From an uncultured Paracoccaceae bacterium (GTDB lineage Bacteria; Pseudomonadota; Alphaproteobacteria; Rhodobacterales; Rhodobacteraceae): DNA of 64,000 bases. Every line of letters starts with the position of its first letter. Within the stretch, counting starts at the first letter, position 1. The notes beneath the pieces are model-generated. The model made no database searches and was not told the origin of the DNA. It saw only the letters and a list, made by a program, of their open reading frames with translations. Shown here piece by piece: positions 1 to 18,547 of the stretch. The translations under genes were made by a program, and so were the position numbers. The stretch covers positions 186,001 through 250,000 of the forward strand of contig CANMPD010000001.1 of NCBI GenBank assembly GCA_947499635.1. The letters run 5' to 3'.

Positions 1-1261
1 TGATATGCATGAGGAGCTTAGCTTCTATATAAGACGGGTAAAGGTTTTCACCTGCCCGAACTATCAGTCGCTTCTTGCGGCCAGCGAAAAAATAGAATTG
101 ATCACGCCGCTGGAATATGTCTCCGGTTCTGATCGTGTCGGTCGTATTGCCAAATGCGCTAGCGGAACCCACTGGGTCATTGAGGTATCCCAGCATGGCG
201 GTCGGTGTCTGAACCAGTAATTCCCCATCGTTTGCAGCTAAGGACAAATGCACATCCCGCATTGGTGTGCCAAGCGGTACGGCTTGATAATGTTCGAGCT
301 GTTCCGCATCCAAAAGCGCGCTTGCAACTCGAGGACCAGCCTCGGACAGGCCATAGGTTGAAAAGATTTGGGCTTGTGGCGCATCATACAACAAGCGCCG
401 CGCTTGCGGCGCGTGCAGGTAATCCCCGCCAACTGTCAGTACACGCAGACGGCGTAGTACATGCGGATTATAGGTCGATTGGGCACTGCCGGGCGTTATC
501 ATACCTACTGTAAGGTTTTGAGCGGACAAAAGTTTGAGGGGATTCTGCCGGTGCGTGTCGATCACTACTCCAGTGGCCCCGGCAAGAAGCGTACTAAACA
601 GCCCTGCCACCAGTCCGTAGCTGAAATAGAACGGCAAATTCAAGGCTATCCGATCAGATGCGCGCAAGCCGATCGCCTCCATGTGCATTTGGGCATTACG
701 GATCACGTTGGCGAAGGAGTGCACGATGACTTTTGGGCGCCCTGTCGTACCGCTAGACAAGATCCCTAAAAGAGCAGCGCCAGAGTAGTGTCCGGAATCC
801 ATCTGAGCCGTTGATAGAAGGCTGAGCCCCCCGGGTAGCGGGCGCCGCGTGTACAGCTTTTGGACGTGATAACTACCAACGGCGCTGGTCGGAACAACCA
901 TCAGACCACCCCGGCCTTGGAGTAAGGTTTCGAGCCGGACAGCCGCTGGTGTGGTGGGCTTGATCAGGATCGGAAATAGCCCAGCCACGCTCGCTCCGAG
1001 CAATAGTACAACCGAAGCAAGGTCATTGCGCATCGGGATTAGGATTGGAGTAGACGGAGCTACGTCCAAGTTCTGGAGCATCTTGGCCCACTCCACCGCC
1101 TGTTGTGCAATCTCGGGCCCTCGCAGGATCGCTTCGTTTGCGGGGTCGAAAATTTGGCAATGTCCAGCCCGATCATTTTGCTGGCTCATCCAAGTCAGAA
1201 GACCTGTGGGATCGACCTTATTCAGCAAAGCCAACGAAGTTAGCGTGGGTGCCTTATGCAT
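1..1261 (-). CDS. AMP-dependent acyl/aryl ligase (ANL superfamily), 3' end cut by window start
   Basis: Read on the minus strand from an ATG at 1261 that overlaps the stop of the upstream gene (TAATG), the frame stays open for 420 codons to the window edge. It carries the adenylate-forming hallmarks in order: SSGTTGRPK at residues 169-177 (phosphate loop), STYGLSEAGPR (A5-like), an RTGD motif (A7), and AGRKKRLIVRAGENLYP (A8 hinge). The family activates a carboxylic acid as an acyl-AMP and transfers it to CoA or a carrier-protein thiol. As the most downstream visible gene of a coupled operon with a dedicated ACP, it may load a starter acid on that ACP or activate the finished acid; this is inference. 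The C-terminal catalytic lysine region lies outside the window. Confidence 0.85.
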   Translation of the reverse strand, partial: MHKAPTLTSLALLNKVDPTGLLTWMSQQNDRAGHCQIFDPANEAILRGPEIAQQAVEWAKMLQNLDVAPSTPILIPMRNDLASVVLLLGASVAGLFPILIKPTTPAAVRLETLLQGRGGLMVVPTSAVGSYHVQKLYTRRPLPGGLSLLSTAQMDSGHYSGAALLGILSSGTTGRPKVIVHSFANVIRNAQMHMEAIGLRASDRIALNLPFYFSYGLVAGLFSTLLAGATGVVIDTHRQNPLKLLSAQNLTVGMITPGSAQSTYNPHVLRRLRVLTVGGDYLHAPQARRLLYDAPQAQIFSTYGLSEAGPRVASALLDAEQLEHYQAVPLGTPMRDVHLSLAANDGELLVQTPTAMLGYLNDPVGSASAFGNTTDTIRTGDIFQRRDQFYFFAGRKKRLIVRAGENLYPSYIEAKLLMHI

Positions 1262-2049
1262 TAGACTACCGCAGTGTGGTGGAATCCGCCATCCGCGAAC
1301 AATCGTTCGCCTGTGATAGCCGTAGCCTCTCCGGATAGCAAAAATAAGGCTAATTTGTTGACCTCTTGGATGCTAGGCACGCGCTTTGCAGGTGTTGCTT
1401 TTTCATAGACGGTTACCAAGTTTCGAAAATTTGGGTGGCTCATCGCCGCGCTGCTGGCAACTGGCGGAGCGCTAAGGGTGTTAATCGTAATTCCCTGCGA
1501 GGCTAGTTCCGGTGTCATTTGGCGCACTGCGCCCTCTAGTGTGGCCTTGCACAGGCCAAGGAGTTCATATCCCGAAACCAGAGTATCGCTGCTTAGGAAA
1601 CTGTAGGTTAGGATTGTGCCACCTTCCTGCATCAACTCGCGGGCGTGACCTGCAGCGTCGATCAAGCTGAAAGCACTGATGTCGATGGCTCGCAGGAAGT
1701 CCGCGCGATTGAGGTCGGTAATCGGGAAGGGACCTTTAGCAGTAGGAGCCGCTGCTATAGCATGCACCAAAAAATCTATTTTTCCAAAAATTCCAGAAAC
1801 TTGAGAAAAAAATGAATTGACACTCGCCGGATCCGAAGCGTCGTAGGGCAGAAGGTGATCCGCCGCGAGGGTGGGCAGCGCTTTTTGAGCCATCACAAAT
1901 CTTTTAGCTTTCGGGTCATCATTCTCGGGCAAATAACTGCATATCAAGTCCGCACCCGACGCCAGCAGCTGGTTCGCGCAGTCTGCTGCAATCGAGCGCT
2001 TGTTCAGGACGCCGAGAACGACCCCTTTCTTACCTTCGAAGTTAATCAT
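1261..2049 (-). CDS. FabI-like enoyl-[acyl carrier protein] reductase (SDR family)
   Basis: This 262-residue protein has the FabI layout. It starts with a GKKGVVLGVLNKRSIA cofactor loop in place of the usual GxxxGxG, followed by a VHAIAAAP segment and the Y-x6-K pair (YELLGLCK) of the enoyl-reductase active site. The second conserved tyrosine of FabI (the 'SY' ten residues before the catalytic Tyr) appears as Phe here. The family reduces trans-2-enoyl-ACP to acyl-ACP with NAD(P)H. The start overlaps the preceding stop by four bases (ATGA), so translation is coupled. It probably supplies the saturation step of the cluster's ACP-bound chain rather than housekeeping fatty-acid synthesis. An SDR with another substrate is possible. 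Confidence 0.8.
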   Translation of the reverse strand: MINFEGKKGVVLGVLNKRSIAADCANQLLASGADLICSYLPENDDPKAKRFVMAQKALPTLAADHLLPYDASDPASVNSFFSQVSGIFGKIDFLVHAIAAAPTAKGPFPITDLNRADFLRAIDISAFSLIDAAGHARELMQEGGTILTYSFLSSDTLVSGYELLGLCKATLEGAVRQMTPELASQGITINTLSAPPVASSAAMSHPNFRNLVTVYEKATPAKRVPSIQEVNKLALFLLSGEATAITGERLFADGGFHHTAVV

Positions 2050-2630
2050 GAGAGTAGCGGTTCCTTGGAGTCCAGTAGGATGAGGTTCAATAGATCGACC
2101 GGTGGCAGGCCGTCCGGAAGGCTTGAAGCTTTGTAAAGGCGGCGCGAGCGTTCGGTTACGGCGATGACGCTGGCGCGATGTGTGGTGTTATCGTCATCTG
2201 CTGCGATCAGCACAATGCAATCGCAGTTACGAGTCTGCGTGAGCGCTGTTGCACTGGCAAAAGCCAGGCGCAGAGCGTCAGTGCTTCCGCTTAGCGCAAA
2301 GCACGGCCCATGAGACTGTACAGCCATAGCAGGATAGCTGGCCAGCATAGTATTACTCGCACGTGCAAAGAAGGCTTGCCGAGGGCGCTGTGCGCGAACG
2401 CTGTCGAAAACACGATTTAAATGCGCCGTACATCCCCGGTCTGTCAACGCTATGTGCGCGGTACGGGGTGTTGTCGGAGCAACCCGCGCGGCAAAAGTTT
2501 CTAACGCATGCAGCGTTACCCCTACCAGTGGATCAAAACGTTTGTCCTTCAGCACAAAGGCCGATTTCGGGATTGGCTCAACGCGAGGCACGGAAACAGC
2601 TACACCCAATCCTGGAACGCATTCAAGCAT
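2046..2630 (-). CDS. short beta-ketoacyl synthase-like protein without active-site Cys (chain-length-factor-like)
   Basis: At 194 residues this is about half the length of a ketosynthase. The stretch GPCFALSGSTDALRLA resembles the nucleophile-elbow region of ketosynthases, but the nucleophilic cysteine is absent and no HGTGT or GHxxGA motifs follow. This matches the N-terminal-only ketosynthase-like proteins (Ketoacyl-synt_2 type) that accompany the ketosynthase in aryl polyene and related type II systems, where they act as chain-length factor or scaffold. It starts in a TAATG overlap with the ketosynthase gene and ends in an ATGA overlap with the reductase gene. Pairing with the adjacent ketosynthase is inferred from this coupling. 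It could also be a degenerate second ketosynthase. Confidence 0.65.
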   Translation of the reverse strand: MLECVPGLGVAVSVPRVEPIPKSAFVLKDKRFDPLVGVTLHALETFAARVAPTTPRTAHIALTDRGCTAHLNRVFDSVRAQRPRQAFFARASNTMLASYPAMAVQSHGPCFALSGSTDALRLAFASATALTQTRNCDCIVLIAADDDNTTHRASVIAVTERSRRLYKASSLPDGLPPVDLLNLILLDSKEPLLS

Positions 2631-3754
2631 TATGCGGCCTCTAACAATATCGCGGAATTAACCCCCCCAAACCCTAATGTGACAGACGCAGCATAGGGTT
2701 TGGTTGAAGGGCTCGCAACGCGGAGCAAATTTAGGGTGATGTCCGGATCAGGCGTGACTAGCCCATATACAGGAGGAAGTTCGCTGCGTTTGAGAGCGTT
2801 CATTGTCACAACTGCCTCCACAAGCCCGGTTGCACCTAAGGTATGACCAAGGGCTCCTTTGGTGCTGCTAACGGGAATTTTCTTGGCTTCTGAGGAAAAC
2901 GCCAGTTCAATGGCTTTGGTTTCAGCCAAATCATTCAGGCGAGTGCCACTGCCATGAGCGTTGATATAGCCAATGTTACCGGGCTCTACGCCAATACAGG
3001 CGCGTTGGAGCGCCTCGGCAACATAAGTCCCGTGCGGGTTGGGTGCGGTGACGTCATGAGCGTCAGCTGATGCACCATAGCCAACAACTCGACCCATAAT
3101 CGGCAGTTTCAACCGGGTTGCAGCGTAGCTGTTAGCAAGGATTTTACAGGCACAGGCCTCTCCGAACGAAGTTCCACTACGAGAAGTGTCAAAGGGCCGC
3201 GCTCGATCGCGGCTTTGGGTACCGAGCGCTACATGTTGCATCAACTTTCCGGCGCCAAGGCTATCGAAGGCTAGGATTCCAACAGCACTTGCTAATCCGG
3301 TAGAGAGCGCTTGAGCCGCTAGAGAGACGGCATCAGTGCCGCTGGAGCACGCACTGGAAACTACAACGTGGGGCGGGACAAGTCGTGTCGGGGGACAATG
3401 CCGAGATAGGGACCGAGACAAGGCTGCCCGGGGGTTGCCTGCGTCGTCGCCCACAAGATCGCCAACGCTGCAGGCACCAATAATCAGATCGCACGACCAC
3501 AAGGCTGACGGAATAATTGTAGCGAAGGCCAGTTCAAAAATTTGGCCAAGCCGGTCCTCTCCTGTCACTTGTGGCAAGATACCGACATGTCCGCCGTGTT
3601 CGTCAATCGCCGGATGATCAAACACGTCGCTGGCTACGCTAAGACCCGATCTGCCCATGTTGAGCGCGTTGAAGAGCGCATCTCCATGACCGAGGCAGGT
3701 GAGAGCGTCGGCATGTAGGACATAGTAATCATGCGAACTGTTGCGCACGTTCAA
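2630..3754 (-). CDS. beta-ketoacyl-ACP synthase (FabF/KAS-II-like)
   Basis: This 374-residue condensing enzyme has the full Cys-His-His set: SSACSSG (Cys about 136), INAHGSGT (His about 267) and SSTKGALGHTLGATG (Lys about 299, His about 304). The C-terminal SVTLGFGGVN block is also typical. The family performs decarboxylative Claisen condensation of malonyl-ACP with an acyl-ACP. The reading frame opens with TTG, overlapping the dehydratase stop, with an AGGGA about nine bases upstream; a GTG two codons on is an alternative start. It is slightly shorter than the usual 400-415 residues. It lies directly upstream of a Cys-less ketosynthase-like gene, suggesting a KS/CLF-like heterodimer specific to this cluster. 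Confidence 0.85.
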   Translation of the reverse strand: MNVRNSSHDYYVLHADALTCLGHGDALFNALNMGRSGLSVASDVFDHPAIDEHGGHVGILPQVTGEDRLGQIFELAFATIIPSALWSCDLIIGACSVGDLVGDDAGNPRAALSRSLSRHCPPTRLVPPHVVVSSACSSGTDAVSLAAQALSTGLASAVGILAFDSLGAGKLMQHVALGTQSRDRARPFDTSRSGTSFGEACACKILANSYAATRLKLPIMGRVVGYGASADAHDVTAPNPHGTYVAEALQRACIGVEPGNIGYINAHGSGTRLNDLAETKAIELAFSSEAKKIPVSSTKGALGHTLGATGLVEAVVTMNALKRSELPPVYGLVTPDPDITLNLLRVASPSTKPYAASVTLGFGGVNSAILLEAA

Positions 3755-4380
3755 AACCCGATCCCTGCATAAATGCGACGTTTGACCCGATTCAACTCGG
3801 CACTACCTTCCATGGCCGGAGAAAAGGTGATGCCCAGATCGTTTTTGGTTTCGTAGTAAGGGAAATCCCGCACACGCAGCTCAAAATCAAATTTGATGGA
3901 ATGAATTCCACGCCCGCCTGTGCGCCAGACGGCAATATCCAGCAGCGTGCCAGGTGGAACGGGATGGCCAAGCTTGATATTTACATCCGATACGACGGTC
4001 ATTTCTTGGCTATTGCCATCGCCTTTAAGCGGACGAGTCGTGCCGAGAAACATAGCGATACCAAGCTGGATCGTGTCCTGCATCATGTTTGTTCCGGGAT
4101 AGATCCCAGCATCTTCGAAATGTCCCTCGAATGCTGGATGAGAGCAAGATACCGCCCGAACAGCATGCATCCAACCCGACTTGAAATTGTGCGCTAAAAC
4201 CTGGTCCACACCGAGCATAGGGTGTTTGTGGCGTAAGTAGCTCTTGAGTTGAGTATGTGTAATTGGTCCATTGTCGTCTTCGCGCGTGTGGTTGACGATG
4301 CTATCATACGAGAAAGCAGACGCCGTTTCCTCCGAAGCGGGTGCATCTTCGATAATGGAGTCGTGGGGGAATTCAGTCAT
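3751..4380 (-). CDS. FabA/FabZ-like hot-dog dehydratase with altered active-site acid
   Basis: This 209-residue protein shows the FabA/FabZ pattern: RHKHPMLGVDQVL, then HPAFEGHFEDAGIYPG (the GHF histidine), then a helix reading PGTNMMQDTIQ. In FabZ and FabA the seventh residue counted from that proline-glycine is the catalytic Glu or Asp; here it is Gln, with Asp one place later. An extra N-terminal segment of about 40 residues precedes the domain. The family dehydrates beta-hydroxyacyl-ACP. With the changed acid it could be a slow or shifted dehydratase, an isomerase, or a non-catalytic binding protein. It is coupled by ATGA overlaps to both neighbours. Confidence 0.7.
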   Translation of the reverse strand: MTEFPHDSIIEDAPASEETASAFSYDSIVNHTREDDNGPITHTQLKSYLRHKHPMLGVDQVLAHNFKSGWMHAVRAVSCSHPAFEGHFEDAGIYPGTNMMQDTIQLGIAMFLGTTRPLKGDGNSQEMTVVSDVNIKLGHPVPPGTLLDIAVWRTGGRGIHSIKFDFELRVRDFPYYETKNDLGITFSPAMEGSAELNRVKRRIYAGIGF

Positions 4381-4772
4381 TTTGCATCGTCCTTGTAAGA
4401 GGCAAGTGAAGTTCGAAGGTCCGGAGCAAGCGCAGTGGAATTGCCCGTATCACGATCAATGGCGGCCAGCTTGACGCGAACATTTGCACATAACGCGCCG
4501 TTGGATGTGATCGTTGCATCAGCCACCAGGAACGAGCGCCGAACCCCGGAGAAATCCAAGGCAACTGCGAATTGATCGCCGAACCGGATTGGGTGGCTGT
4601 ACTGAGACGTCACATCTGTCACCGCAAAGCTGTGCGGCAGCGTCTCCATCGGCAGGTCGAGAGCCGTCAAAGTCTCAGAGAAGGCCTCTTCAAAATGGCG
4701 AAGATAATTAGAGAAGTGACACACCCCATCGCTGTCAGTTTCGTGGTGGAACAAGCGTCGTTGATAAGTCAT
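4377..4772 (-). CDS. YbgC/4-hydroxybenzoyl-CoA-type acyl thioesterase
   Basis: From ATG 4772 this gives 131 residues. A strong GAGGAGAG ribosome site lies 5-12 bases upstream, so I prefer it over the in-frame start 15 codons earlier, which lies inside the aminotransferase gene. The N-terminus HHETDSDGVCHFSNYLRHFEEAF matches the D-x-D/G-x-x-x-x-x-N-Y hot-dog signature of YbgC-like thioesterases, with the catalytic Asp in the ETDSDG stretch. The family hydrolyses acyl-CoA or acyl-ACP thioesters. In this operon it probably releases or edits the ACP-bound chain. It is separated from the aminotransferase by 17 bases and overlaps the dehydratase by four. Confidence 0.8.
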   Translation of the reverse strand: MTYQRRLFHHETDSDGVCHFSNYLRHFEEAFSETLTALDLPMETLPHSFAVTDVTSQYSHPIRFGDQFAVALDFSGVRRSFLVADATITSNGALCANVRVKLAAIDRDTGNSTALAPDLRTSLASYKDDAK

Positions 4773-4789
4773 AGGAACTCTCTCCTCGC

Positions 4790-6196
4790 TCAGGCAGACT
4801 TCAGCGTCTTTGCGCACTGGGAAATACGCGACATGGCTTCGGTCAAAGTGTCTTCGTGGATCGTGAGCGGAGGAGTTAGGCGGATGGTCTCATTAATCCG
4901 AGCCTCTTTAGGCACCTTGCGGTTAAATAGACCACTTTCGGTTTCAGTTAGAACACCGTGTCGCACGAGCTCATTACGCACCAGATGGCCTTTGCGGGCG
5001 AATGCTTTTGAAAGCTCCAACCCTGCAAACAGGCCTTGACCGCGGGCTTCCTTAAAGACCTCCGGATGTTCTGCCTGCACCGACTTCAACCCATCCAGTA
5101 GGAAATGACCTAAGCGAGCGGAGTGTTCAATGAGCTCGTGGCGAGCGATATAATCCAACCCAGCGTTCACGGTAGCGGCCTGAAATGGGCGCGCATTGAA
5201 TGTGCGTACACCAATCCCGGCACGAAGACGCAGGCGATCTTTGCGCCATGCCAGCGCTGACATCGGGAAAAGACCAAACCCGAGCGCTTTGCCTAGCGAA
5301 ATACAGTCCGGTACACGCCCTTTTGGCAGAGCCAAAATGTTGCCTGTACGAAAACCTGTCAGAATTTCGTCATCAAAGACCTTTGCGTCCTCAGCTGCGG
5401 CATGTTCGAATAAGCTGTCCCACCACGCGTCCGAGGCGGGAATAATCCCGCCATCGCCAAGGATACCTTCCACGAACACGGCGCGAATTCGACCCTTATA
5501 AGTCTCGAACAGCGTTTCTAGATGATCCATGTCTCCATACACCAGATACGCGGTCTCGACCGATTGTACGCGGGGCAACCCATCAGTAAATTGACGGCGG
5601 TCAAGCATCTGGTTGGTGCCAAGTGACCAGCCATGCCAGGCGCCATGACAGGCGATGATAACGTCTTTCTCGGCCCGCGTATCGATGCCCCGTGCTAGAT
5701 CAAACCCATCAAGGCAAGCAAGTTGCAGCGCGAGGTCCATGGCTTCAGACCCGGTGCTGGTAAAGGTAATTTCCCAGCTATCAGGGGACGTTGCGGTATG
5801 CGCACCAATCATACCTTTGATGTTTCTCACCAATTGGCGACGCTCAAGAGAATGGAACTCGTCGTTGGTGGTTGTGCTTTGAACAAGAAAATTAGGTAAT
5901 TGCTGGCCGATTTCCGCGATTTTGTCGCCAAGAATTCCGGTACCGTAGCCGCAAGACATATTAATCACATCACGTGCTTGGATCACACCGCTGTCAGACA
6001 GCTCCAGAGTCAGAATACGGGTGTCTTTCTGGTTGAGAAAGGTAAAATTGGTGCGCCCACCATAGTGGTCGGCGACCTCGTCACCTTGCTCAACGCAAGT
6101 CCGTAAGGTTTCCGGCAGCAAGTCCGGGTCGACTATCTGATTGTCTCGGGCTGCGTCCCAAAGGTCGTCATGTGTCAGCGGCAAACGCTCCAACAT
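4790..6196 (-). CDS. class III PLP-dependent aminotransferase
   Basis: This 468-residue fold-type I PLP enzyme has GSEAMDLALQLA (cofactor phosphate region), DDEILTGFRTG (the Asp contacting the PLP ring nitrogen) and SLGKALGFG (Schiff-base lysine), the three marks of class III (omega) aminotransferases. Relatives include GSA aminomutase, BioA and the aminotransferases built into lipopeptide or polyketide lines. Its ATG overlaps the ACP stop (TGATG), so it is translated directly behind the carrier protein. That order suggests it aminates a carbonyl on an ACP-bound or released chain, giving an amine or amino acid product. The substrate cannot be read from sequence. Confidence 0.85.
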   Translation of the reverse strand: MLERLPLTHDDLWDAARDNQIVDPDLLPETLRTCVEQGDEVADHYGGRTNFTFLNQKDTRILTLELSDSGVIQARDVINMSCGYGTGILGDKIAEIGQQLPNFLVQSTTTNDEFHSLERRQLVRNIKGMIGAHTATSPDSWEITFTSTGSEAMDLALQLACLDGFDLARGIDTRAEKDVIIACHGAWHGWSLGTNQMLDRRQFTDGLPRVQSVETAYLVYGDMDHLETLFETYKGRIRAVFVEGILGDGGIIPASDAWWDSLFEHAAAEDAKVFDDEILTGFRTGNILALPKGRVPDCISLGKALGFGLFPMSALAWRKDRLRLRAGIGVRTFNARPFQAATVNAGLDYIARHELIEHSARLGHFLLDGLKSVQAEHPEVFKEARGQGLFAGLELSKAFARKGHLVRNELVRHGVLTETESGLFNRKVPKEARINETIRLTPPLTIHEDTLTEAMSRISQCAKTLKSA

Positions 6197-6453
6197 CAGG
6201 CTGACTCCGCCACTTTGTCGGTAGCACCCACGATCACCGCGAGAATTTCCGCGATTGTGGTCATTGGCTTATCCATATTTTCAGAGCCAAGTCCTTTGAC
6301 GGAGAATTCCTCTTCTAGGAATACGCGAAGTTCAGTCTGATCCAGACTGTCGAGGTCGAGTTGATCGTCGTTGGAAGCCTCTTCGACTTCGTCCTTCATC
6401 ATGTCATCCAGAAGGAATACGCGAAGTTTGTTTTCTGCGGTTTTGAGGTCCAT
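6196..6453 (-). CDS. acyl carrier protein, first gene of the lipid/polyketide-like cluster
   Basis: Starting at ATG 6453, preceded by AAAGGA six bases upstream, the protein has 85 residues. It is strongly acidic and contains LDLDSLDQTEL, where the DSL serine is the expected 4'-phosphopantetheine site. An in-frame ATG ten codons upstream lies beyond the ribosome site and inside a palindrome, so I do not use it. ACPs carry growing acyl chains for the condensing, reducing and dehydrating enzymes. Being the promoter-proximal gene, it sets the stoichiometry of the operon. A separate ACP gene lies at 15.9 kb, which supports a dedicated role for this one. Confidence 0.88.
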   Translation of the reverse strand: MDLKTAENKLRVFLLDDMMKDEVEEASNDDQLDLDSLDQTELRVFLEEEFSVKGLGSENMDKPMTTIAEILAVIVGATDKVAESA

Positions 6454-6467
6454 TTGATGTCCTTTCA

Positions 6468-6483
6468 TTGGGTCATGACCCAA
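6468..6483. promoter_or_regulatory. perfect 16-bp palindrome in the acp leader
   Basis: TTGGGTCATGACCCAA is its own reverse complement. It lies 15-30 bases before the acp start codon, just upstream of the AAAGGA ribosome site. A dimeric repressor could bind here to control the whole biosynthetic operon. No regulator gene is visible in the cluster part that lies inside the window. Confidence 0.45.
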
Positions 6484-6821
6484 ATGCGTATTGTTGTTGA
6501 GATACTTAGCTTAACAGTAACTTGGCTAAACTTGCGCCGGGATGCACTATGTCAATTCTTCGGTATTGGAGAACACCGCGAAACGCGTATTTATTGCATT
6601 CGGGTTTGAAGAGGTGATTATCAAAACTCGGACCAATTATTCAGCTGGATCTGCGGATAAAGGGCCTGATCCAAATTGAAGAAACGAAACAAACATTGCT
6701 TCGTCCAGCTTGTGCTAAACAACATTTTCAATGTTCCGCGACTGGGTCCGAAGATCAAATACGAAACGATACGTATCATTGGTGTTTATTTCTATGTGGC
6801 GATGAATTTCGGGCAAGACGA
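6484..6821. other. divergent intergenic region between acp and the M20 hydrolase
   Basis: About 340 bases without a convincing gene. It must hold the promoters of the minus-strand biosynthetic operon and of the plus-strand hydrolase. I could not pick clear -35/-10 pairs. The in-frame extension of the hydrolase frame up to 6696 is rich in Cys, His and Trp and does not look like protein-coding sequence of this family. Confidence 0.4.
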
Positions 6822-8024
6822 ATGCAGAATAACAGTCTGGTCGATGCGCTTTCGCACTCACAGCTTGATCACTATGTTAAGCTGAGGCGGTATTTACATC
6901 AGCATCCAGAAATCGGCTTTGAAGAAGAGCTGACGTCATCGGTTGTGGCCCGCGAACTCTCCGACATCGGCCTTACCCCACATACCGGCATAGCGAAGAC
7001 CGGCGTTGTCGCAACAATAACTGGAACGATGGGACAGTCAGACAGAACAGTTGCTCTTCGGGCAGATTTGGACGCGCTTGCAATCACCGAGGAAAACGAT
7101 TTGCCCTATGTCTCAAAACATCCTGGGCGCATGCATGGCTGTGGTCATGATGGACATACCGTGATGCTCTTGGCGGCCGCGCGTCTCTTGGTTCAGCAAC
7201 AAGAACGATTTTCTGGAACTGTTGTCCTGATCTTTCAGCCCGGCGAGGAGGGCCATGCCGGCGCGCGCGCGATGCTACAGGACGGCCTGCTCAAACGTTT
7301 CCCTTTTGATGAGATCTATAGCTTGCACAACTGGCCAGGCCTTAACGTGAACCATGTGGCGCTTAACCCGGGGCGAATGATGGCTGGCATCGACCGATTT
7401 ACCATCAAAATACGTGGTAAAGGTGGGCACGGAGGTCACCAATACCAAACCAATGATCCTATTTTACCGATGGTCCAACTTGTTCAGTCATTGCAGACGA
7501 TTGTGTCCAAGAATGTAAGCGCCTTTCGGGAAGCAGTGGTTAGTTTGAATCTTGTAAAGTCTGGACACGAAGGCGCCCTTAGCGTCGTTCCAGATTCTGC
7601 TGTCATCCAAGGGATGACCAAGTGGTTTGATGAAGACATAAGCCGCCTACTACATAATCGAATTGCTGATCAGATCGAAGGTACGGCCAAATCGTTCGAC
7701 GTCGTGATCAACGAGAAGTATGAAAAGCTGTATCCACCGACAATCAACCATAGAAAACAGGCCGAGTTGGCTTTGAAAGTCGCCCAGAGAGTTGTTGGTT
7801 CAAACCGAACATATTGGGGCGTAGGGCCGAGTATGGCCTCGGAGGATTTCGCTTTCTTCTTGCAGGAGAGACCGGGCGCTTTCTTCCGTCTAGGTATAGG
7901 AGAGAACGCGCCGCCTCTTCACAGTCCAAGATATGATTTCAACGATGAAATACTGTCAACAGGCGCTCGGTTGCATGCGCTGATCGCAATAGATGCCTTA
8001 AAGGAGGGCACAGCTGCTCAGTAA
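6822..8024 (+). CDS. M20 family amidohydrolase (hippurate / N-acyl-amino-acid hydrolase type)
   Basis: From ATG 6822 the protein has 400 residues, the normal family length. An upstream in-frame start would add 42 residues of atypical composition. Metal-site motifs are present: ALRADLDALAI, then MHGCGHDGH, then FQPGEEGHAGA, then GKGGHGGH, and a late ASEDFAFF with the last acidic ligand. The family uses a two-metal centre to hydrolyse N-acyl amino acids, hippurate or auxin conjugates. It is divergent from the biosynthetic operon, so it could deacylate a related amide or be unrelated. No signal peptide, so probably cytoplasmic. Confidence 0.88.
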   Translation: MQNNSLVDALSHSQLDHYVKLRRYLHQHPEIGFEEELTSSVVARELSDIGLTPHTGIAKTGVVATITGTMGQSDRTVALRADLDALAITEENDLPYVSKHPGRMHGCGHDGHTVMLLAAARLLVQQQERFSGTVVLIFQPGEEGHAGARAMLQDGLLKRFPFDEIYSLHNWPGLNVNHVALNPGRMMAGIDRFTIKIRGKGGHGGHQYQTNDPILPMVQLVQSLQTIVSKNVSAFREAVVSLNLVKSGHEGALSVVPDSAVIQGMTKWFDEDISRLLHNRIADQIEGTAKSFDVVINEKYEKLYPPTINHRKQAELALKVAQRVVGSNRTYWGVGPSMASEDFAFFLQERPGAFFRLGIGENAPPLHSPRYDFNDEILSTGARLHALIAIDALKEGTAAQ

Positions 8025-8069
8025 CAAAGACTTTCATCACCACATGATGACGCCACGGGATTGATCAGC

Positions 8070-8125
8070 CCCACCTAAGTGGTCCTCCGCTATGTTTAGG
8101 AAAACGGAGGACCACTTCAGTGGGG
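8070..8125. repeat. long inverted repeat near an IS remnant
   Basis: The arms AAGTGGTCCTCCG (8077-8089) and CGGAGGACCACTT (8105-8117) match perfectly. With a two-base mismatch they extend outward into CCCCAC/GTGGGG, giving about 20 paired bases around a 15-base loop. There is no T-tract, so it is not a typical terminator. It lies 46 bases after the hydrolase stop and directly before the IS3-like remnant, and could be joined IS ends or a remnant of another element. Confidence 0.55.
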
Positions 8126-8456
8126 GTGACCTGCCCCCCCCCCGAAACCTCCCGCACTTTAATGTAGAGTTTGCTCAACCTTTTGAAGGAGTAAACAGAT
8201 GCGAAAGAGCCGATTTACAGAAGCGCAGATTATCGGAACGATCAAAGAACAGGAAGCCAGGATGCCGACAGCGGAGGTGTGCCGTCAGTATGGCCTGAGT
8301 CAGGGCACTTTCTATAAATTTAAATCCAAGTATGGCGGCATGGATGTGTCTGACGCGACCAAGCTGAAGGCTTTGGAAGATGAGAATGCCAAGCTGAACG
8401 TCTGCTCGCGGATCAGATGCTAGAGCGTAAGGGTAGCCATCTGCTGACCAGTATTT
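8126..8456 (+). mobile_element. IS3-family insertion sequence remnant, left end and orfA only
   Basis: A C-rich segment (TGACCTGCCCCCC, 8127-8139) resembles the left ends of IS3-group elements. It is followed by an orfA-like gene preceded by GAAGGAG at 8185-8191. No orfB, with its DDE catalytic domain, follows. Coding resemblance stops shortly after 8430, so the element is truncated. It marks this stretch as a site of repeated insertion. Confidence 0.6.
8199..8423 (+). pseudogene. frameshifted IS3-family transposase orfA
   Basis: The 74-residue frame starts with MRKSRFTEAQIIGTIKEQEA, the classic IS3 orfA helix-turn-helix opening. It continues through CRQYGLSQGTFYKFKSKYGG to LKALEDENAKL. Where relatives continue KRLLADQMLE, the frame breaks near 8398: the same codons (CGT CTG CTC GCG GAT CAG ATG CTA GAG) resume one base out of register, which fits a single-base deletion. 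The protein then ends in an artificial SRIRC tail. OrfB is missing, so the transposase cannot be active. Confidence 0.8.
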
Positions 8457-8666
8457 ATTCATTCACGCCATGACCTTGAGGCTTTCAGCCACTTCTTTCT
8501 TTAGTCGGGGAGGCCGAGCGGCTTTGCCTCTTCTCTCCCCGAAAGAGAATTAGATCGAAGAGACGCTTGTTTTGTCGGTTCCTCCTGAAGGTTTCCCCCA
8601 ACAAAACAGAGCCTCTTTCGCCGATTTCTCTTTTCCCCTCCCATCTCCACTCTCGCCGAGGGGCAA

Positions 8667-8684
8667 GGGTTGCAGGAGCAACCC
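8667..8684 (+). repeat. small hairpin upstream of the methyltransferase gene
   Basis: GGGTTGC and GCAACCC form a perfect 7-bp stem around an AGGA loop, 24 bases before the methyltransferase start. The rest of 8457-8708 is pyrimidine-rich and holds no gene I can support. The hairpin could affect translation or mark an element boundary. Confidence 0.35.
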
Positions 8685-8708
8685 CTAAACCATTGGGGAT
8701 ATTAGAAA

Positions 8709-9371
8709 ATGAAAAGGAATTTGATTATTGAGGGCGATGCCGCCCATGTGTTGAACACTTTGCCAGAGGGCTGCGTTGATTTGGTGATCACCGATCCGCC
8801 GTATCTGGTGAACTATCAGGATCGCTTGGGTAGTAAGCTCAAGAATGATGACAACCCCGAGGGTGTTTTACCTGTGTTTGCACCGATGGCGCGGGCGATG
8901 ACGCAGGACAGCTATGCAATTTGCTTTGCGGGCTGGTCGGCTTTGCCGCAGTTCACCGCCGCGTGGGAGGCGGCAGGCTTGCGGATTGTGAGCCAGATCA
9001 TCTGGCAGAAACGTTATGCTTCGCGCCGTGGTTTTACGCAGTATCGCCATGAGAGCGCCTATGTGCTGGCAAAGGGCAATCCTGCGCGGCCTAAGCAGCC
9101 TGTGCCAAGCGTGATGGAGTGGGTCTATTCGGGTAATCGGGCACATCCGACAGAAAAGGCCGTGGAAATCCTTGCACCACTGGTGCGTTGTTTTTCCAAA
9201 GCGGGGGATTTGGTCTGTGATCCGTTTTCTGGCTCTGGTTCGACCTCGGTTGCGGCAGCTTTGAACGGGCGGGATTATCTCGGCATCGATATTGATCCCA
9301 AACATGTGGCGACAGCACAAGCGCGGCTCGCGGGCGTGGCACGCTATCAGGCAGGGAGGGTTGCGGCATGA
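8709..9371 (+). CDS. orphan DNA (adenine-N6 or cytosine-N4) methyltransferase
   Basis: This 220-residue protein carries DPPY at residues 29-32 (motif IV, catalytic) and FSGSGST at about 173-179 (motif I, S-adenosylmethionine binding). DPPY comes before FxGxG, as in beta-class enzymes. An AHPTEKAVEIL block before motif I is typical of N6/N4 methyltransferases. No restriction nuclease gene is adjacent, so it is an orphan enzyme of the kind found on prophages and integrative elements. It overlaps the next gene by four bases (ATGA). The target sequence cannot be predicted. Methylation could protect the element or alter gene expression. Confidence 0.85.
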   Translation: MKRNLIIEGDAAHVLNTLPEGCVDLVITDPPYLVNYQDRLGSKLKNDDNPEGVLPVFAPMARAMTQDSYAICFAGWSALPQFTAAWEAAGLRIVSQIIWQKRYASRRGFTQYRHESAYVLAKGNPARPKQPVPSVMEWVYSGNRAHPTEKAVEILAPLVRCFSKAGDLVCDPFSGSGSTSVAAALNGRDYLGIDIDPKHVATAQARLAGVARYQAGRVAA

Positions 9372-10006
9372 ATGCGTGTTCCGATCAACTCGGCTTTGAC
9401 GCGCTGCTACAGAGCGCAGAAACAGAAAATGCGACACGTCAGTTTGATCACGAAGTGGCGCATCTGCCTGCGGATATGGCGGCGGCGATTGCGTTTCATC
9501 GGGATCAGATTGCGGCCCATCACGAAGCAATGCTGGCCAGTGACTTTGAGAAAGCCTTGGCCATTCGCGAAGAGGCGCATCTTTTGGCGCGCAAGCTCAA
9601 TGGCGGCAGGCATGGGATTATCGCGCATGATGATGCCCCAGGCTGTGTGCTTGCGAAGGCATGCGCCGCCCCAAACGGCGCAGTACCGCTTTGGGGTCAA
9701 GACGGCATGTTCACGACCTGCGCCGCAGGCATGGAAATGCAGGTCACCATGGGCGGCATGTTTGGGATTGGCGCAACGGCAATGCCTTATCTCGGCTTTT
9801 GCGTGCGCTCGGTGGACAAGTCGCAGCCCTTTTTAAGTGACACAGGCTTTCGCAGCTTTCTGGGGGCTTCATTACCACCGCAAAAGGGGCGAACGCCCGA
9901 GGGGTTTGCTCGGGATGTGGTGCAAGAACATGTCCGTGCGCAGCTTAAGGGGCGTTTGGTGTTGATCCATCCAGATTGGCGCGGGCGACATGCTGAATTA
10001 TGGTAA
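9368..10006 (+). CDS. unknown protein of the recombinase element
   Basis: I do not recognise this 212-residue protein. It is translationally coupled to the methyltransferase (ATGA overlap). The first third is helical and charged (FHRDQIAAHHEAMLASDF, ALAIREEAHLLARKL). A middle segment is glycine-rich (MQVTMGGMFGIGATAMPYLGF), and the last third ends RLVLIHPDWRGRHAELW. It has no signal peptide or clear membrane span. Its context is an integrated element, so it may work with the methyltransferase or serve element maintenance; that is inference only. Confidence 0.6.
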   Translation: MNACSDQLGFDALLQSAETENATRQFDHEVAHLPADMAAAIAFHRDQIAAHHEAMLASDFEKALAIREEAHLLARKLNGGRHGIIAHDDAPGCVLAKACAAPNGAVPLWGQDGMFTTCAAGMEMQVTMGGMFGIGATAMPYLGFCVRSVDKSQPFLSDTGFRSFLGASLPPQKGRTPEGFARDVVQEHVRAQLKGRLVLIHPDWRGRHAELW

Positions 10007-10020
10007 CTAATTACGATCAT

Positions 10021-10065
10021 TTGACATTTTTGGAATTTTGCACTACATTTAGGACAACATTCCTA
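10021..10065 (+). promoter_or_regulatory. sigma-70-like promoter with overlapping inverted repeat, before the recombinase genes
   Basis: TTGACA (10021-10026), 17 bases, then TACATT (10044-10049) forms a good -35/-10 pair. An inverted repeat TAGGA-N6-TCCTA (10050-10065) lies at the expected transcription start. A second small hairpin (CTGATC/GATCAG, 10175-10190) lies in the leader. The rest of 10007-10239 shows no gene. This region probably drives the small ORF and the recombinase, under possible repressor control. Confidence 0.5.
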
Positions 10066-10239
10066 GAAATCCGTCTGCATTTTGTCGTGGTCTCAATCGT
10101 ATTTGAGGGCCGTCAAATCCCTATGCGCCCGCAGCCAGCCCAGCTGCGGCCCGCCTCTGTGCGCGCGGACGGCTCTGATCCTCGGATCAGAAACAAAAAT
10201 TTGCGTCCCTCTGGCGAGGGCCGCAGGAAAGCATCCATT

Positions 10240-10470
10240 ATGACACTAAATTTTGACCACTACCGCGCCGCTGCGCGGGCTGCTGGCGACCACCGGCACT
10301 ATACCGACGCCGAGATCCTGCGCCTTTGGGGCTTTGTCGATTATCTGGCCACACGGGCCATAAAACAGGCTTGTCCACATCTTATTGCGCAAGACCCAGC
10401 GGCAAATACGGCGATCTGCGACACCTTTGCACTATACTCTAAAGAACCACAAAAGGAGGCCAAAACATGA
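10240..10470 (+). CDS. small unknown protein coupled to the serine recombinase
   Basis: From ATG 10240 this gives 76 residues. The frame is open further upstream, but that part covers the promoter and a hairpin, so I reject it. The protein has a charged N-terminal helix (FDHYRAAARAAGDHRHYTDAEILRLWGFVDYLATRAIKQ is the overall character, split here as FDHYRAAARAAGDH and DAEILRLWGFVDYLAT). Its stop overlaps the recombinase ATG by four bases. Possibilities include a directionality factor or regulator for the recombinase; nothing in the sequence proves either. Confidence 0.55.
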   Translation: MTLNFDHYRAAARAAGDHRHYTDAEILRLWGFVDYLATRAIKQACPHLIAQDPAANTAICDTFALYSKEPQKEAKT

Positions 10471-12083
10471 GCACAGCCGTCATTTACACGCGCGTTTCCT
10501 CCAAAGCGCAGCTTAAAAAGGGCGATGGCCTCGCCAGTCAGGAAACCCGCTGCCGCGAGTTTGCCAATTACAAAGGCTATGAAATCATCAAGGTTTTCAA
10601 AGACGAGGGCATCTCGGGCGGTCTGGTGGACCGTCCCGCCATGCGCGAGATGCTTGGCTTTTTGCGCAAACACAAAGACAGCGAGCCGGTGATCATCATC
10701 GACGACATCTCGCGGCTGGCCCGCGACTTGGATGCACATCTGAAACTACGCGCCGCCATCGGCTCGGTCGGTGCGCGGCTGGAAAGCCCCTCAATTGAGT
10801 TTGGCGAGGACAGCGACAGTCAGTTGATTGAGAATATGTTGGCCTCGGTCAGCCAACACCATCGCCAGAAAAACGCAGAGCAAACGCAAAACCGCATGCG
10901 TGCGCGGTTGCAGGCAGGGTATTTCTGCTTTTGGGCTCCGACGGGCTATACATACGTTAAAAGCGCCTCGGGTGGCAAAGTTCTGAAGCGCGACGAGCCC
11001 GCCGCCAGCCTCATTCAAGAGGCGTTAGAGGGCTTTGCCTCGGGGCGGTTTCAAACCCAGGCGGACGTGCGCCGATTTCTTGAGCCTCATCCGATTTTTA
11101 GCCGCGACAAGAACGGAAATATCCACCCGCAGCGCGTCAAGAACATGCTGACCAACAAAATCTACGCGGGCTATTACGAACACAAACCTTGGGGCATTCC
11201 TCTCACCAAGGGCAAGTTTGAACCAATCATCGACTGGGCCACATTCGAACAGATCCAGACCCGCCTTGAAGCCCGCACAAGCGCACCGCAAAAGACCACC
11301 TCCGCCGCAGATTTCCCGCTGCGCGGACATATCGCTTGCGGCTGTTGTGGCCACCCTATGACGGGGTACTGGGTCAAGGGGCGCAGCAAGCGCTATGCCT
11401 ATTACGAATGCTTTCAGAAAGGATGCCCCGAGCGGCGCAAATCCGTGCGTCGTGCCGACGCTGAGGCGCACTTTGTCGGGCTTTTAAATCAGTTGCGCCT
11501 CAGCAACGGCCCGCTTGCCATGGCAAAACTGATGTTCAAAGAGCTTTGGGACAAACGTATCACCGCCCATTCAGGGCATCGCAAAGCGCAAAAGACCAAT
11601 CTGACTCGTCTGGATACAGACATCCGCAAAGCAACGGAACGACTGATCAGCACGGACAGCGAAGCCACCATCAAAGCGCTAGAGGCACGGCTGGATAAAC
11701 TGGAAAAGGAAAAAGCCCTGATCGCCGAAGATCTGGCAAAAACCAAACCAAAGCCCAAAGACTTCGATCAAAGTTTCCGAACCGCGATAGATTTCCTCGC
11801 AAACCCCCGAAAACTCTGGGAAACAGGCCGCATCGACGACCGCAAAGCCCTGCTAAACTTGGTATTTACAGCCCCAATTCCATACACACGAAACAAAGGT
11901 TTCCGAACCGCAAAAACCACTAGTGTTTTCAATGTGTTGAAGGGGATCTCATCAGGTGAAGATGAAATGGCGGACCCAGAAGGATTCGAACCTTCGACCT
12001 TCGCCTTCGGAGGGCGACACTCTATCCAGCTGAGCTATGGGTCCGGATGCTATAGAAGCACTTATGCTATATCTATGGTTTGA
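10467..12083 (+). CDS. large serine recombinase (integrase) reading antisense into tRNA-Arg
   Basis: This 538-residue protein has an N-terminal resolvase domain with YTRVSSKAQ (catalytic serine at about residue 11) and the GISGGLVDRPAM region. A recombinase domain follows at about 155-260. A zinc ribbon, CGCCGHPMTG with a later CFQKGC pair, lies at about 285-320, and a coiled-coil tail at about 375-430. These enzymes integrate and excise elements by serine-based strand exchange. From about residue 501 onward the reading frame passes antisense through the tRNA-Arg gene and its promoter, so the last 38 residues (starting MADPEGFEPS) are tRNA-derived. That tail is probably supplied by the host attachment site. 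Confidence 0.88.
   Translation: MSTAVIYTRVSSKAQLKKGDGLASQETRCREFANYKGYEIIKVFKDEGISGGLVDRPAMREMLGFLRKHKDSEPVIIIDDISRLARDLDAHLKLRAAIGSVGARLESPSIEFGEDSDSQLIENMLASVSQHHRQKNAEQTQNRMRARLQAGYFCFWAPTGYTYVKSASGGKVLKRDEPAASLIQEALEGFASGRFQTQADVRRFLEPHPIFSRDKNGNIHPQRVKNMLTNKIYAGYYEHKPWGIPLTKGKFEPIIDWATFEQIQTRLEARTSAPQKTTSAADFPLRGHIACGCCGHPMTGYWVKGRSKRYAYYECFQKGCPERRKSVRRADAEAHFVGLLNQLRLSNGPLAMAKLMFKELWDKRITAHSGHRKAQKTNLTRLDTDIRKATERLISTDSEATIKALEARLDKLEKEKALIAEDLAKTKPKPKDFDQSFRTAIDFLANPRKLWETGRIDDRKALLNLVFTAPIPYTRNKGFRTAKTTSVFNVLKGISSGEDEMADPEGFEPSTFAFGGRHSIQLSYGSGCYRSTYAISMV
11968..12044 (-). tRNA. tRNA-Arg (anticodon CCG)
   Basis: Read on the minus strand, the 77-base gene starts GGACCCATAGCTCAG, has a D-arm, an anticodon stem TCGCC/GGCGA with loop CTCCGAA (anticodon CCG), the T-arm signature GGTTCGAATCC, and ends GGGTCCGCCA with CCA encoded. 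The acceptor stem GGACCCA/TGGGTCC is perfect. It reads CGG arginine codons. It lies at the end of the recombinase gene, whose coding frame covers it in antisense, so it is the likely attachment site of the element. The gene itself appears intact. Confidence 0.93.
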
Positions 12084-12094
12084 AAGCGGTGCAA
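12066..12094 (-). promoter_or_regulatory. promoter of tRNA-Arg(CCG)
   Basis: On the minus strand, TTGCAC (12094-12089), 17 bases, then TATAGC (12071-12066) lies about 22 bases upstream of the tRNA 5' end. This gives a short leader, as expected for a tRNA. The end of the recombinase reading frame (12083) falls inside it. Confidence 0.5.
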
Positions 12095-12152
12095 CGGGTA
12101 ATCTTCATGATTCAATATATGAAAATCACCCCACGTCCATATGTCGAAAAAC

Positions 12153-12719
12153 CTACCCGCGCCAGGTGCGAATATCACCACAATCCATATGTACAAAATT
12201 TGACCCGTAGTATCGTCCCACACCGCCTGCGTGACATGATTGCGCTGCATTTGCCATTTGCGAAACGGAACGCGAGGATAGCCGTAGATCGGCCGCTTGC
12301 CCTTTAATATGAAGGGAATTTTTGGCAACGGCGCGTGAACTATTACGCAGCTGCGCATTCGTTTTTGGGCTACGATAACCAGAAAGAAGCAGATAAGGCT
12401 CTGACGCATTCATCAAATTGTGAGATGCAGCCATAATATCGATTGTGCGGTGGTCGATTTTTTTGATGCTATTGGTACGCCAGTCCCGCATGAAAGTATT
12501 GATTTCATCCATAGCGTCTTTGATGTATTCACCGTCGACCCAATAGACCATATTTAGATGTTCGCCTGTGCGCCCTGAGTACATTTTAAGGCGACGAATG
12601 TCTCCGCTGCCTTTTAAGAACCCAGCTGCATTTGCAAACGTTGGTGCTACGGTAACTGCTGTTGCAGCAAAAGCCTGTAATAATGCACGACGGTTTAAAC
12701 CGCTTTTTTGATCTGCCAT
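12153..12719 (-). CDS. DUF882 / YcbK-type murein peptidase-like protein, Tat-exported
   Basis: This 188-residue protein begins with a twin-arginine-style leader (NRRALLQAFAATAVTVAPT, cleavage near ANAAG). The mature part holds SGYRSPKTN, HIKGQAADLRL and FVHMDCG, the metal-ligand motifs of the M15-like DUF882 family. E. coli MepK (YcbK) of this family cleaves L,D-cross-links in peptidoglycan. It is divergent from an L,D-transpeptidase, so the pair could make and cut the same type of cross-link. The fold and zinc ligands support a periplasmic amidase or endopeptidase; the precise bond is inferred. Confidence 0.82.
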   Translation of the reverse strand: MADQKSGLNRRALLQAFAATAVTVAPTFANAAGFLKGSGDIRRLKMYSGRTGEHLNMVYWVDGEYIKDAMDEINTFMRDWRTNSIKKIDHRTIDIMAASHNLMNASEPYLLLSGYRSPKTNAQLRNSSRAVAKNSLHIKGQAADLRLSSRSVSQMANAAQSCHAGGVGRYYGSNFVHMDCGDIRTWRG

Positions 12720-13089
12720 GTTACGCGTTGTCCCATACGCTTATTGCTAAGGTGCTTCTGACGTTGCAGGAGCATTTTAACGTTTTGAAACGCTACGTAA
12801 TGTATTGCATGACATTATGTGTCTGCCAAGATTTGCTTTGATTTTGCTGTGAAAACGCAGGTTTTTAGGCAAAATTTCGCGCAAATGAGGAAAAACCCTA
12901 TACTTTCCCCCTTTATTTTGAGGATTTTTACGTCGTTACACTACTCGTATGATAACATTTAGTTTACGTGACGCCTTTAACTGATGGGGTGACCTGTTCA
13001 TAGAAATGTGAATAAGCATATCCACAGCATTTTTACCGACTTGGTATATTAAGTGATCCTGTAAGGATGTTTGATTTTTGGAGAGCGCA
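12720..13089. other. divergent intergenic region with paired DnaA-box-like sites
   Basis: About 370 AT-rich bases between two divergent cell-wall genes. TGTGAATAA at 13007-13015 is the complement of the perfect DnaA box TTATTCACA. ATATCCACA at 13018-13026 differs from a box by one base and faces it. They lie about 70 bases before the L,D-transpeptidase start. An in-frame TTG at 13078 precedes the chosen ATG at 13090. Confidence 0.4.
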
Positions 13090-17391: not shown

Positions 17392-17431
17392 GACTGCTCA
17401 CGTATAGCGTTAAGCAGTCTTAGGGGATATT

Positions 17432-18040: not shown

Positions 18041-18221
18041 GAACGCCTCATTTGGTTAAGTTTGATACGGCGTTTACCATGCAAATTGCGCAGTGTCAGG
18101 CACTTATCTGAGTGAAACACATAAGAATGATAAGCTGGGTTGGTAAGCCCAAGCGTTCTGAACATGAATATGTAAGCGTCACACGTACATAAGCGTATTT
18201 ATTTGAATTGATTATGTGGTA

Positions 18222-18293
18222 AAATAAAAAAGAGAACCACTAAGGCTCTCTTTTTATTTAGTCTCCCCGTCGAACTGGCCGACTTAGTTATTA
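18222..18293 (-). ncRNA. candidate small RNA 1 (about 70 nt)
   Basis: On the minus strand a promoter-like pair is followed, about 7 bases on, by a short non-coding stretch and a terminator. The stretch has a GTCG/CGAC mini-hairpin and an unpaired GGGGAGAC. The terminator is a 12-bp hairpin with T-tract (18259-18224). No reading frame or downstream minus gene explains it, since ialB starts only at 18040 and has its own leader. The terminator hairpin has A and T runs on both sides, so it could also end a plus-strand transcript. Confidence 0.4.
18224..18259 (-). terminator. bidirectional-looking terminator of candidate small RNA 1
   Basis: Stem of about 12 bp with one mismatch around the loop ACTAA, flanked by A/T runs on both sides. 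On the minus strand the stem ends in a T-tract. Confidence 0.65.
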
Positions 18294-18299
18294 GAGAAA

Positions 18300-18328
18300 A
18301 TGTTAGGCGTGAATGCGCTGATCGTCAA
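18300..18328 (-). promoter_or_regulatory. sigma-70-like promoter for candidate small RNA 1
   Basis: On the minus strand, TTGACG (18328-18323), exactly 17 bases, then TAACAT (18305-18300). It has five and four consensus matches out of six. There is no minus-strand gene start close by, which points to a short transcript. Confidence 0.45.
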
Positions 18329-18530: not shown

Positions 18531-18547
18531 GTTAAGATTTTATGTTT

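What the first reader, a model, noticed from the sequence alone, without database searches (positions are those of the whole stretch)
1..6483. Undescribed type II FAS/PKS-like operon with a built-in aminotransferase
Eight coupled genes encode ACP, class III aminotransferase, thioesterase, dehydratase, ketosynthase, Cys-less ketosynthase-like partner, FabI-like reductase and AMP ligase. Almost every junction is an ATGA, TAATG or TGATG overlap. I see no ketoreductase or phosphopantetheinyl transferase in the visible part. The combination resembles aryl polyene systems (KS plus short KS-like subunit) but adds amination and enoyl reduction, which would suit an amine-capped or beta-amino acyl chain. 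I do not recall a described pathway with this order.
Basis: partly seen in the sequence, partly recalled or inferred. Interest (0 to 1): 0.78.

Follow-up and report, generated by a model that had tools for sequence, protein, structure and literature searches.

The report
Cispentacin-type operon with own reductase
This is a relative of a recently described gene set that builds cispentacin, a small ring-shaped antifungal amino acid, and it appears to carry its own copy of an enzyme that the known version borrows from ordinary fatty-acid synthesis.

Summary
The genes and overlaps are real, but the pathway is not undescribed. The order ACP, aminotransferase, thioesterase, FabZ-like protein, KS, short KS-like protein, AMP ligase is that of amcB-C-D-E-F-G-H, which makes the cyclopentane beta-amino acid cispentacin from 2-oxoglutarate and malonyl-ACP (Hibi 2023, PMC10698177). 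For five of eight window proteins the best NCBIfam model is the corresponding Amc model, always below its cut-off: a diverged homologue. The eighth gene is the new part: a FabI-like reductase between the amcG- and amcH-like genes. Hibi found no reductase gene in amc and used housekeeping FabI. A FabI-like gene is in 4 of 7 related loci; three of the four form one clade. Both hosts with FabV and no other FabI hit carry one. LuxI, LuxR and a LysE exporter lie beside the operon; the MAG relative has all three, Pseudomonas gessardii the exporter. Most likely product: a secreted cyclopentane beta-amino acid, cispentacin or a close variant. New variant of a known kind.

The parts
6196..6453 (-). Acyl carrier protein (AmcB-like position), 85 aa from ATG 6453; the ORF list starts it at TTG 6483
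   Evidence: Weak NCBIfam hits, AmcB 21.4 bits tied with generic ACPs; DSL serine motif kept in 7 of 7 loci; start
4790..6196 (-). Class III aminotransferase, AmcC-like
   Evidence: Best NCBIfam model AmcC 252 bits (cut-off 600), next argD 127; K303 invariant in 7 of 7
4377..4772 (-). Hot-dog thioesterase, AmcD-like by position; ATG 4772 preferred (GTG 4817 also open)
   Evidence: 4HBT_2 E 2.4e-10; best NCBIfam model YbgC, no Amc model hit; junction
3751..4380 (-). FabZ-like hot-dog protein, AmcE-like (proposed ring decarboxylase)
   Evidence: AmcE 64.8 bits (cut-off 140) against FabZ 48.9; His87 kept, FabZ Glu position is Gln101 in 7 of 7
2630..3754 (-). Ketosynthase, AmcF-like
   Evidence: AmcF 220 bits (cut-off 325) against FabF 180; Cys136, His267, Lys299, His304 invariant in 6 of 6
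2046..2630 (-). Short Cys-less KS-like partner, AmcG-like cyclization factor
   Evidence: AmcG the only NCBIfam hit, 27.6 bits (cut-off 80); model pLDDT 82 with best fold matches 7f28 and the ishigamide CLF 6kxd_B
1261..2049 (-). FabI-like enoyl-ACP reductase, the extra gene
   Evidence: adh_short_C2 E 8e-56; FabI models best, 194 bits, below cut-off 337; F151-Y161-K168; closest PDB sequence 1ulu E 1.7e-44
1..1261 (-). AMP-forming acyl-ACP ligase, AmcH-like; continues 191 bases beyond the window to C1:185810
   Evidence: AmcH 210.5 bits for the full protein (cut-off 370), next 131; ORF L010:15810-17261
6468..6483 (.). Perfect 16-base palindrome just upstream of the ACP ribosome-binding site; possible operator, role untested
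   Evidence: Found; only copy in the genome at up to 1 mismatch

Best explanation
A cispentacin-type type II PKS-like operon with its own enoyl reductase. By homology to the reconstituted Amc pathway: the ligase loads 2-oxoglutarate on the ACP; the KS and its short partner add one malonyl unit and close a five-membered ring; the FabZ-like protein removes CO2 from the ACP-bound oxocyclopentene dicarboxylate; the operon's FabI-like enzyme, instead of the host's FabI, reduces the ring C=C; the class III aminotransferase turns the ketone into an amine on the ACP; the hot-dog thioesterase releases 2-aminocyclopentane-1-carboxylic acid (cispentacin or a close variant). The neighbouring LysE-type exporter probably secretes it, and LuxI/LuxR probably make production density dependent. 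Shown here: gene content, order, homology, catalytic residues, linkage. Inferred: every reaction, the product, export and regulation.
For: Same gene order as amcB-H plus one gene; Amc models best for 5 of 8 proteins; every member scanned hits the Amc models for AmcC (7 of 7), AmcE (7 of 7), AmcF (6 of 6), AmcG (6 of 6), AmcH (7 of 7); catalytic residues kept in KS and aminotransferase; dehydratase Glu lost; CLF-like fold of the short partner; FabI-like gene in 4 of 7 loci, three of them one clade; LysE beside 3 of 7 and LuxI beside 3 of 7 loci.
Against: All Amc scores are below the curated equivalog cut-offs. The ACP does not prefer AmcB, and the thioesterase has no Amc hit. The window's genome has two other FabI-type genes, so it need not depend on the cassette copy. 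The L025 FabI-like protein lies outside the clade and lacks the Tyr; two relatives (L021, L023) have none. No second IleRS as self-resistance; no lux-box-like site above shuffles. No enzyme was assayed.
Confidence: 0.72

Rival explanations
1. Same chemistry, different product: another oxo-acid is loaded, or a later step is changed, giving a different cyclic beta-amino acid or another stereoisomer. This overlaps with 'close variant' above.
For: Every Amc score is below its cut-off; the FabZ-like protein is longer than the 153-position AmcE model, with a C-terminal part conserved in 7 of 7; the FabI substrate loop differs in the window, L020 and L024.
Against: AmcH is the best ligase model by about 80 bits and AmcC the best aminotransferase model by about 125 bits; order and content are as in amc.
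Confidence: 0.22
2. The FabI-like gene is not the ring reductase: it is a passenger or does another reduction, and the host's FabI reduces the ring as in Hibi 2023.
For: Two other FabI-type genes in the genome; the window has F151 where most have Tyr; the L025 copy has His and Phe at the two Tyr positions.
Against: Tyr-x6-Lys is kept in the window, L020 and L024, which form one clade (support 99 and 100); 1 of 34 non-cassette FabI in the same alignment also has F-Y-K; P. gessardii and Pseudoalteromonas show no other FabI hit at E 1e-20; ATGA and TAATG coupling to its neighbours.
Confidence: 0.2
3. An aryl-polyene or other highly reducing type II PKS that extends a chain several times.
For: KS with a CLF-like partner; the partner's fold matches include the ishigamide CLF and ApeC.
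Against: No ketoreductase recognised nearby; the FabZ-like protein has lost the Glu; AmcF, AmcG, AmcE, AmcH models fit best.
Confidence: 0.02
4. A duplicate of housekeeping fatty-acid synthesis.
For: Fab-like Pfam families.
Against: Aminotransferase and AmcH-like ligase in the operon; other FabI genes exist elsewhere; absence of the short partner from all other sampled genomes of the family, 393 of 394.
Confidence: 0.02

Closest known systems
amcB-amcH cispentacin genes of the amipurimycin cluster (Streptomyces sp. SN-C1; Hibi et al. 2023, PMC10698177)
   Same: Same seven functions in the same order; Amc models best for five proteins
   Different: A FabI-like gene sits between the G- and H-like genes; scores below equivalog cut-offs; exporter and LuxI/LuxR beside it instead of the amipurimycin genes
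cfa1-cfa5 coronafacic acid genes of Pseudomonas syringae (as described in PMC10698177)
   Same: ACP, AmcE-like, KS, AmcG-like and ligase homologues; the window FabZ-like protein matches the coronafacic acid dehydratase at 31 %
   Different: By Hibi's typing the CFA type has no amcC or amcD homologue; the window has both kinds of gene. No type I PKS was recognised in the ORF lists nearby
Aryl polyene and ishigamide type II PKS
   Same: KS with a CLF-like partner; fold match to 6kxd_B and 6qsp_B
   Different: No ketoreductase recognised; FabZ-like protein has lost the dehydratase Glu; ligase and aminotransferase present
Housekeeping FabI enoyl-ACP reductase
   Same: Tyr-x6-Lys and overall family
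   Different: Separate clade with L020 and L024; changed substrate loop; in a biosynthetic operon

Membership tests
Cispentacin-type cluster (Hibi 2023: homologues of all seven amcB-H) | Homologues of amcC, E, F, G, H | tested here: met
   Best NCBIfam model is the Amc one for each
Cispentacin-type cluster (Hibi 2023: homologues of all seven amcB-H) | Homologues of amcB and amcD | tested here: inconclusive
   An ACP and a hot-dog thioesterase stand at the right places, but AmcB ties with generic ACPs and the thioesterase has no Amc hit
Amc equivalogs (NCBIfam) | Score over the curated equivalog cut-off | tested here: not met
   AmcC 252 of 600, AmcE 65 of 140, AmcF 220 of 325, AmcG 27.6 of 80, AmcH 210 of 370, AmcB 21 of 80
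Cispentacin-type cluster (Hibi 2023: homologues of all seven amcB-H) | 2-oxoglutarate loading, single extension with cyclization, decarboxylation, release of cispentacin | not testable with these tools
   Needs enzymology
KS-CYF type II PKS subfamily | Active KS with a short CLF-like partner without KS motifs | tested here: met
   KS residues invariant in 6 of 6; 194-aa partner, AmcG its only hit, CLF-like fold
Aryl polyene / highly reducing type II PKS | Ketoreductase in the cluster | tested here: not met
   None recognised by eye in the ORF lists; no profile search was run
Aryl polyene / highly reducing type II PKS | Active dehydratase | tested here: not met
   Residue aligned with FabZ Glu is Gln in 7 of 7; that this Glu is catalytic is recalled
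FabI enoyl-ACP reductase | Tyr-x6-Lys active site and family match | tested here: met
   Y161 and K168; adh_short_C2 E 8e-56; FabI structures the best PDB matches
FabI enoyl-ACP reductase | Score over a FabI equivalog cut-off | tested here: not met
   194 of 337 bits for the best model

The most novel reading that the evidence does not exclude
A mobile, self-contained cispentacin-type cassette in Proteobacteria that has captured its own FabI, so that it also works in hosts whose fatty-acid synthesis uses FabV; it makes a secreted, quorum-controlled cyclopentane beta-amino acid that may not be cispentacin itself, and it is kept under purifying selection in leaf-nodule symbionts of plants.
Probability: 0.35. 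Interest if true: 0.65.

Novelty: new variant of a known kind. Interest (0 to 1): 0.5.

Why it matters
The paper that defined this PKS subfamily found no reductase gene in the amc cluster and reported no common gene near amcG-type clusters that could replace FabI; it read this as crosstalk with fatty-acid synthesis. Here a FabI-like gene sits inside the operon and recurs in 4 of 7 related loci, which makes a dedicated reductase directly testable. The loci also name candidate makers of a cyclopentane beta-amino acid, among them leaf-nodule symbionts, and suggest secretion and quorum control.

Tried and rejected
Aryl polyene and housekeeping duplication were considered and rejected (see rivals). 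A second IleRS as self-resistance was sought; G000 has one gene over the model's cut-off; ProRS was not tested. Lux-box search: nothing above shuffles. Promoter scan of 6300-7000: no sigma-70-like site. Rfam over 1-14000: only the tRNA. Plasmid search with the aminotransferase: 1447 records, all below 60 % identity, the 20 rows shown at 24-28 %. Plasmid search with the FabZ-like protein: 10 records, 9 Pseudomonas annotated as coronafacic acid dehydratase and one Azospirillum, 30-34 %. Empty-site test: three same-genus genomes (G012, G011, G002) share the FMN dehydrogenase of the left flank; in the stretches fetched there was no LuxI, LuxR, LysE, AT or recombinase hit, but the right flank was not found there either (one M20 hit at 42 % in L075), so an empty site was not shown. 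AmcG model in the class: 7 of 385 genomes at E 1e-3, none over the cut-off; of the six others, L013 and L015 matched the KS and L014 nothing; L016-L018 were not examined. FabZ-like profile in 249 genomes of the Pseudomonas genus: P. gessardii itself and one weaker hit, G1193, 79 bits, not followed. Naming the organism by plasmid similarity gave only short hits to Paracoccus and Leisingera; LuxI and recombinase searches on plasmids added nothing decisive. A paper search for leaf-nodule metabolites found two papers that I checked for terms: PMC8599487 had none of them, PMC8362603 had 'polyketide' once, in the introduction.
Full report
What is there. The eight genes and their tight overlaps are confirmed. 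The window lies at C1:186001-250000 of a 3.6 Mb genome. The operon runs leftwards and ends 191 bases outside the window, at C1:185810. Next to it comes a convergent LysE-family exporter (C1:185143-185808), then a LuxR regulator (184353-185087) and a LuxI autoinducer synthase (183648-184283); positions, families. Upstream and divergent lies an M20 amidohydrolase gene (window 6696-8024). It had no hit in the six related loci at E 1e-3, so it is probably not part of the system.

What it is. NCBIfam gives Amc (cispentacin) models as the best hit for the aminotransferase, FabZ-like protein, KS, short KS-like protein and ligase. For the ACP, AmcB ties with generic ACPs; the thioesterase has no Amc hit; the FabI-like protein hits FabI models. 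I read parts 1-4 of 8 of the main text of Hibi et al. 2023 (PMC10698177: abstract, introduction, results, discussion, start of methods); its supplements could not be read. [quoted passage not shown] The window has the same functions in the same order with one gene more, the FabI-like one, between the G- and H-like genes. All scores are below the equivalog cut-offs, so this is a diverged homologue, not an established equivalog. Hibi also reports that amcG-containing clusters occur in more than 150 species, with cispentacin-type clusters in myxobacteria, Bacillus cereus and Ignavibacteriae; some of the loci below may be in its lists.

Relatives. One scan of genome contigs with the aminotransferase gave six loci out of 33 stretches that matched a pattern: Pseudomonas gessardii (L020, 61 % identity), the leaf-nodule symbionts Ca. 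Paraburkholderia calva, Ca. Burkholderia humilis and Ca. B. pumila (L021-L023, 58-59 %), a proteobacterial MAG (L024, 52 %) and Pseudoalteromonas amylolytica (L025, 48 %). All carry ligase, ACP, aminotransferase, thioesterase, FabZ-like protein and KS; six of the seven loci, window included, have the short partner, and L022 is cut off inside its KS. Every member scanned hits the Amc models: AmcG 6 of 6, AmcE 7 of 7, AmcH 7 of 7, AmcF 6 of 6, AmcC 7 of 7; members also hit generic models, and only for the window protein does the output show that the Amc model is the best. In single-sequence searches the short partner was found in 1 of 394 genomes sampled from the family and 1 of 398 from the phylum, the window's own both times. 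With the aminotransferase 55 of 61 related genomes gave hits, the best outside the window being 32 % identical over residues 145-445; I read these as generic aminotransferases.

Catalysis. KS Cys136, His267, Lys299 and His304 are invariant in 6 of 6, aminotransferase K303 in 7 of 7, and the ACP serine motif in 7 of 7. In the FabZ-like protein His87 is kept, while the residue aligned with FabZ's Glu is Gln in 7 of 7. That this His and Glu are FabZ's catalytic pair is recalled. This fits Hibi's decarboxylase role and speaks against a dehydratase. The short partner was modelled at pLDDT 82 (the five models ranged from 82 to 52) and matches the short KS 7f28 and the ishigamide CLF 6kxd_B best.

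The FabI-like gene. Hibi found no reductase gene in amc, showed that E. coli and S. albus FabI reduce the ring, and reported no common gene near amcG clusters that could substitute for FabI. Here a FabI-like gene is in 4 of 7 loci: window, L020, L024, L025. L021 and L023 have no hit; L022 is cut off and cannot tell. In a tree of 38 sequences (4 cassette copies, 5 other copies from cassette hosts, 29 from a sample of the phylum) the window and L020 group at 99 and these with L024 at 100. L025 falls outside and has H-F-K where 33 of the 34 non-cassette sequences have Y-Y-K; the remaining one has F-Y-K, like the window's F151-Y161-K168 (that InhA also has Phe there is recalled). The substrate loop reads SAGPI(K/R)T in 29 of the 34 non-cassette sequences and is different in the window, L020 and L024. 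At E 1e-20 the window's genome has two other FabI-type genes, the MAG one, and the genomes of L021 and L023 one each, while P. gessardii and Pseudoalteromonas have none beyond the cassette copy. Exactly these two have FabV (2 of 6 genomes). So a captured FabI may free the pathway from the host's reductase type. Six genomes are few, and the window's own host would not need it.

Surroundings. LuxI lies beside the window operon, L024 and L022, and LysE beside the window operon, L024 and L020. Only selected ORFs of the relatives were scanned with Pfam, and L020, L022 and L023 lie at contig ends, so absence elsewhere means little. Secretion of a free amino acid under density control is inferred from this linkage alone. 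The operon lies between a recombinase remnant (41 % over 126 aa, C1:182549-182926) and a large serine recombinase ORF whose 3' end overlaps a tRNA-Arg gene. GC is 0.53-0.56 over the operon and 0.52-0.58 over window 8-12 kb, against 0.44-0.53 in the other kilobases printed. This suggests an island, but the empty-site test was inconclusive.

Leaf-nodule symbionts. In L021-L023 the cassette genes have no stops inside, and 15 pairwise comparisons over seven genes give dN/dS of 0.11-0.26, so the cassette is under purifying selection there.

Literature. Searches for cispentacin with biosynthesis (18 papers, all listed), with quorum sensing, Burkholderia, enoyl-ACP reductase or LysE (9,015 papers with two terms, 8 listed), with coronafacic acid terms (2 papers), and a first search (703 papers, 15 listed) showed, in titles and opening lines of abstracts, no paper on a cispentacin-type operon with its own FabI or LuxI. 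Besides PMC10698177 I saw only passages of PMC8241756 and PMC5877770 (cispentacin as an aminoacyl-tRNA synthetase inhibitor and proline-like compound) and term look-ups in PMC8599487 and PMC8362603. Subscription journals are mostly not in the library.

Verdict. Real, coherent, and largely explained by a pathway published in 2023. The new part is the reductase inside the cassette, together with the exporter and quorum-sensing linkage.

Noticed in passing
L021, L022, L023 (cassette genes): Leaf-nodule symbionts of plants keep an intact cispentacin-type cassette under purifying selection (15 comparisons, dN/dS 0.11-0.26); two of the papers on leaf-nodule metabolites that I checked for terms do not mention such a product.
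   Followed up: partly
L025:9252-9746 and 16351-19945: In Pseudoalteromonas a tRNA-editing-domain protein (PF04073) lies directly upstream of the ACP, a possible self-protection against a proline-like amino acid, and two ATP-grasp proteins and a HlyD-type protein follow the cassette, which suggests a peptide product.
   Followed up: partly
window 6468-6483: Perfect 16-base palindrome just upstream of the ACP ribosome-binding site, the only copy in the genome at up to 1 mismatch; possible operator.
   Followed up: partly
window 10467-12083 and 11968-12044: Large serine recombinase ORF whose 3' end overlaps a tRNA-Arg (CCG) gene on the other strand; possible edge of an integrated island.
   Followed up: partly
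window 8709-9371: ORF that looks by eye like a DNA methyltransferase, between the M20 gene and the recombinase; not scanned.
   Followed up: no
L010:12200-13700 (C1:182.2-183.7 kb): Recombinase remnant followed by what looks by eye like an insertion-sequence transposase remnant, left of the LuxI gene.
   Followed up: no
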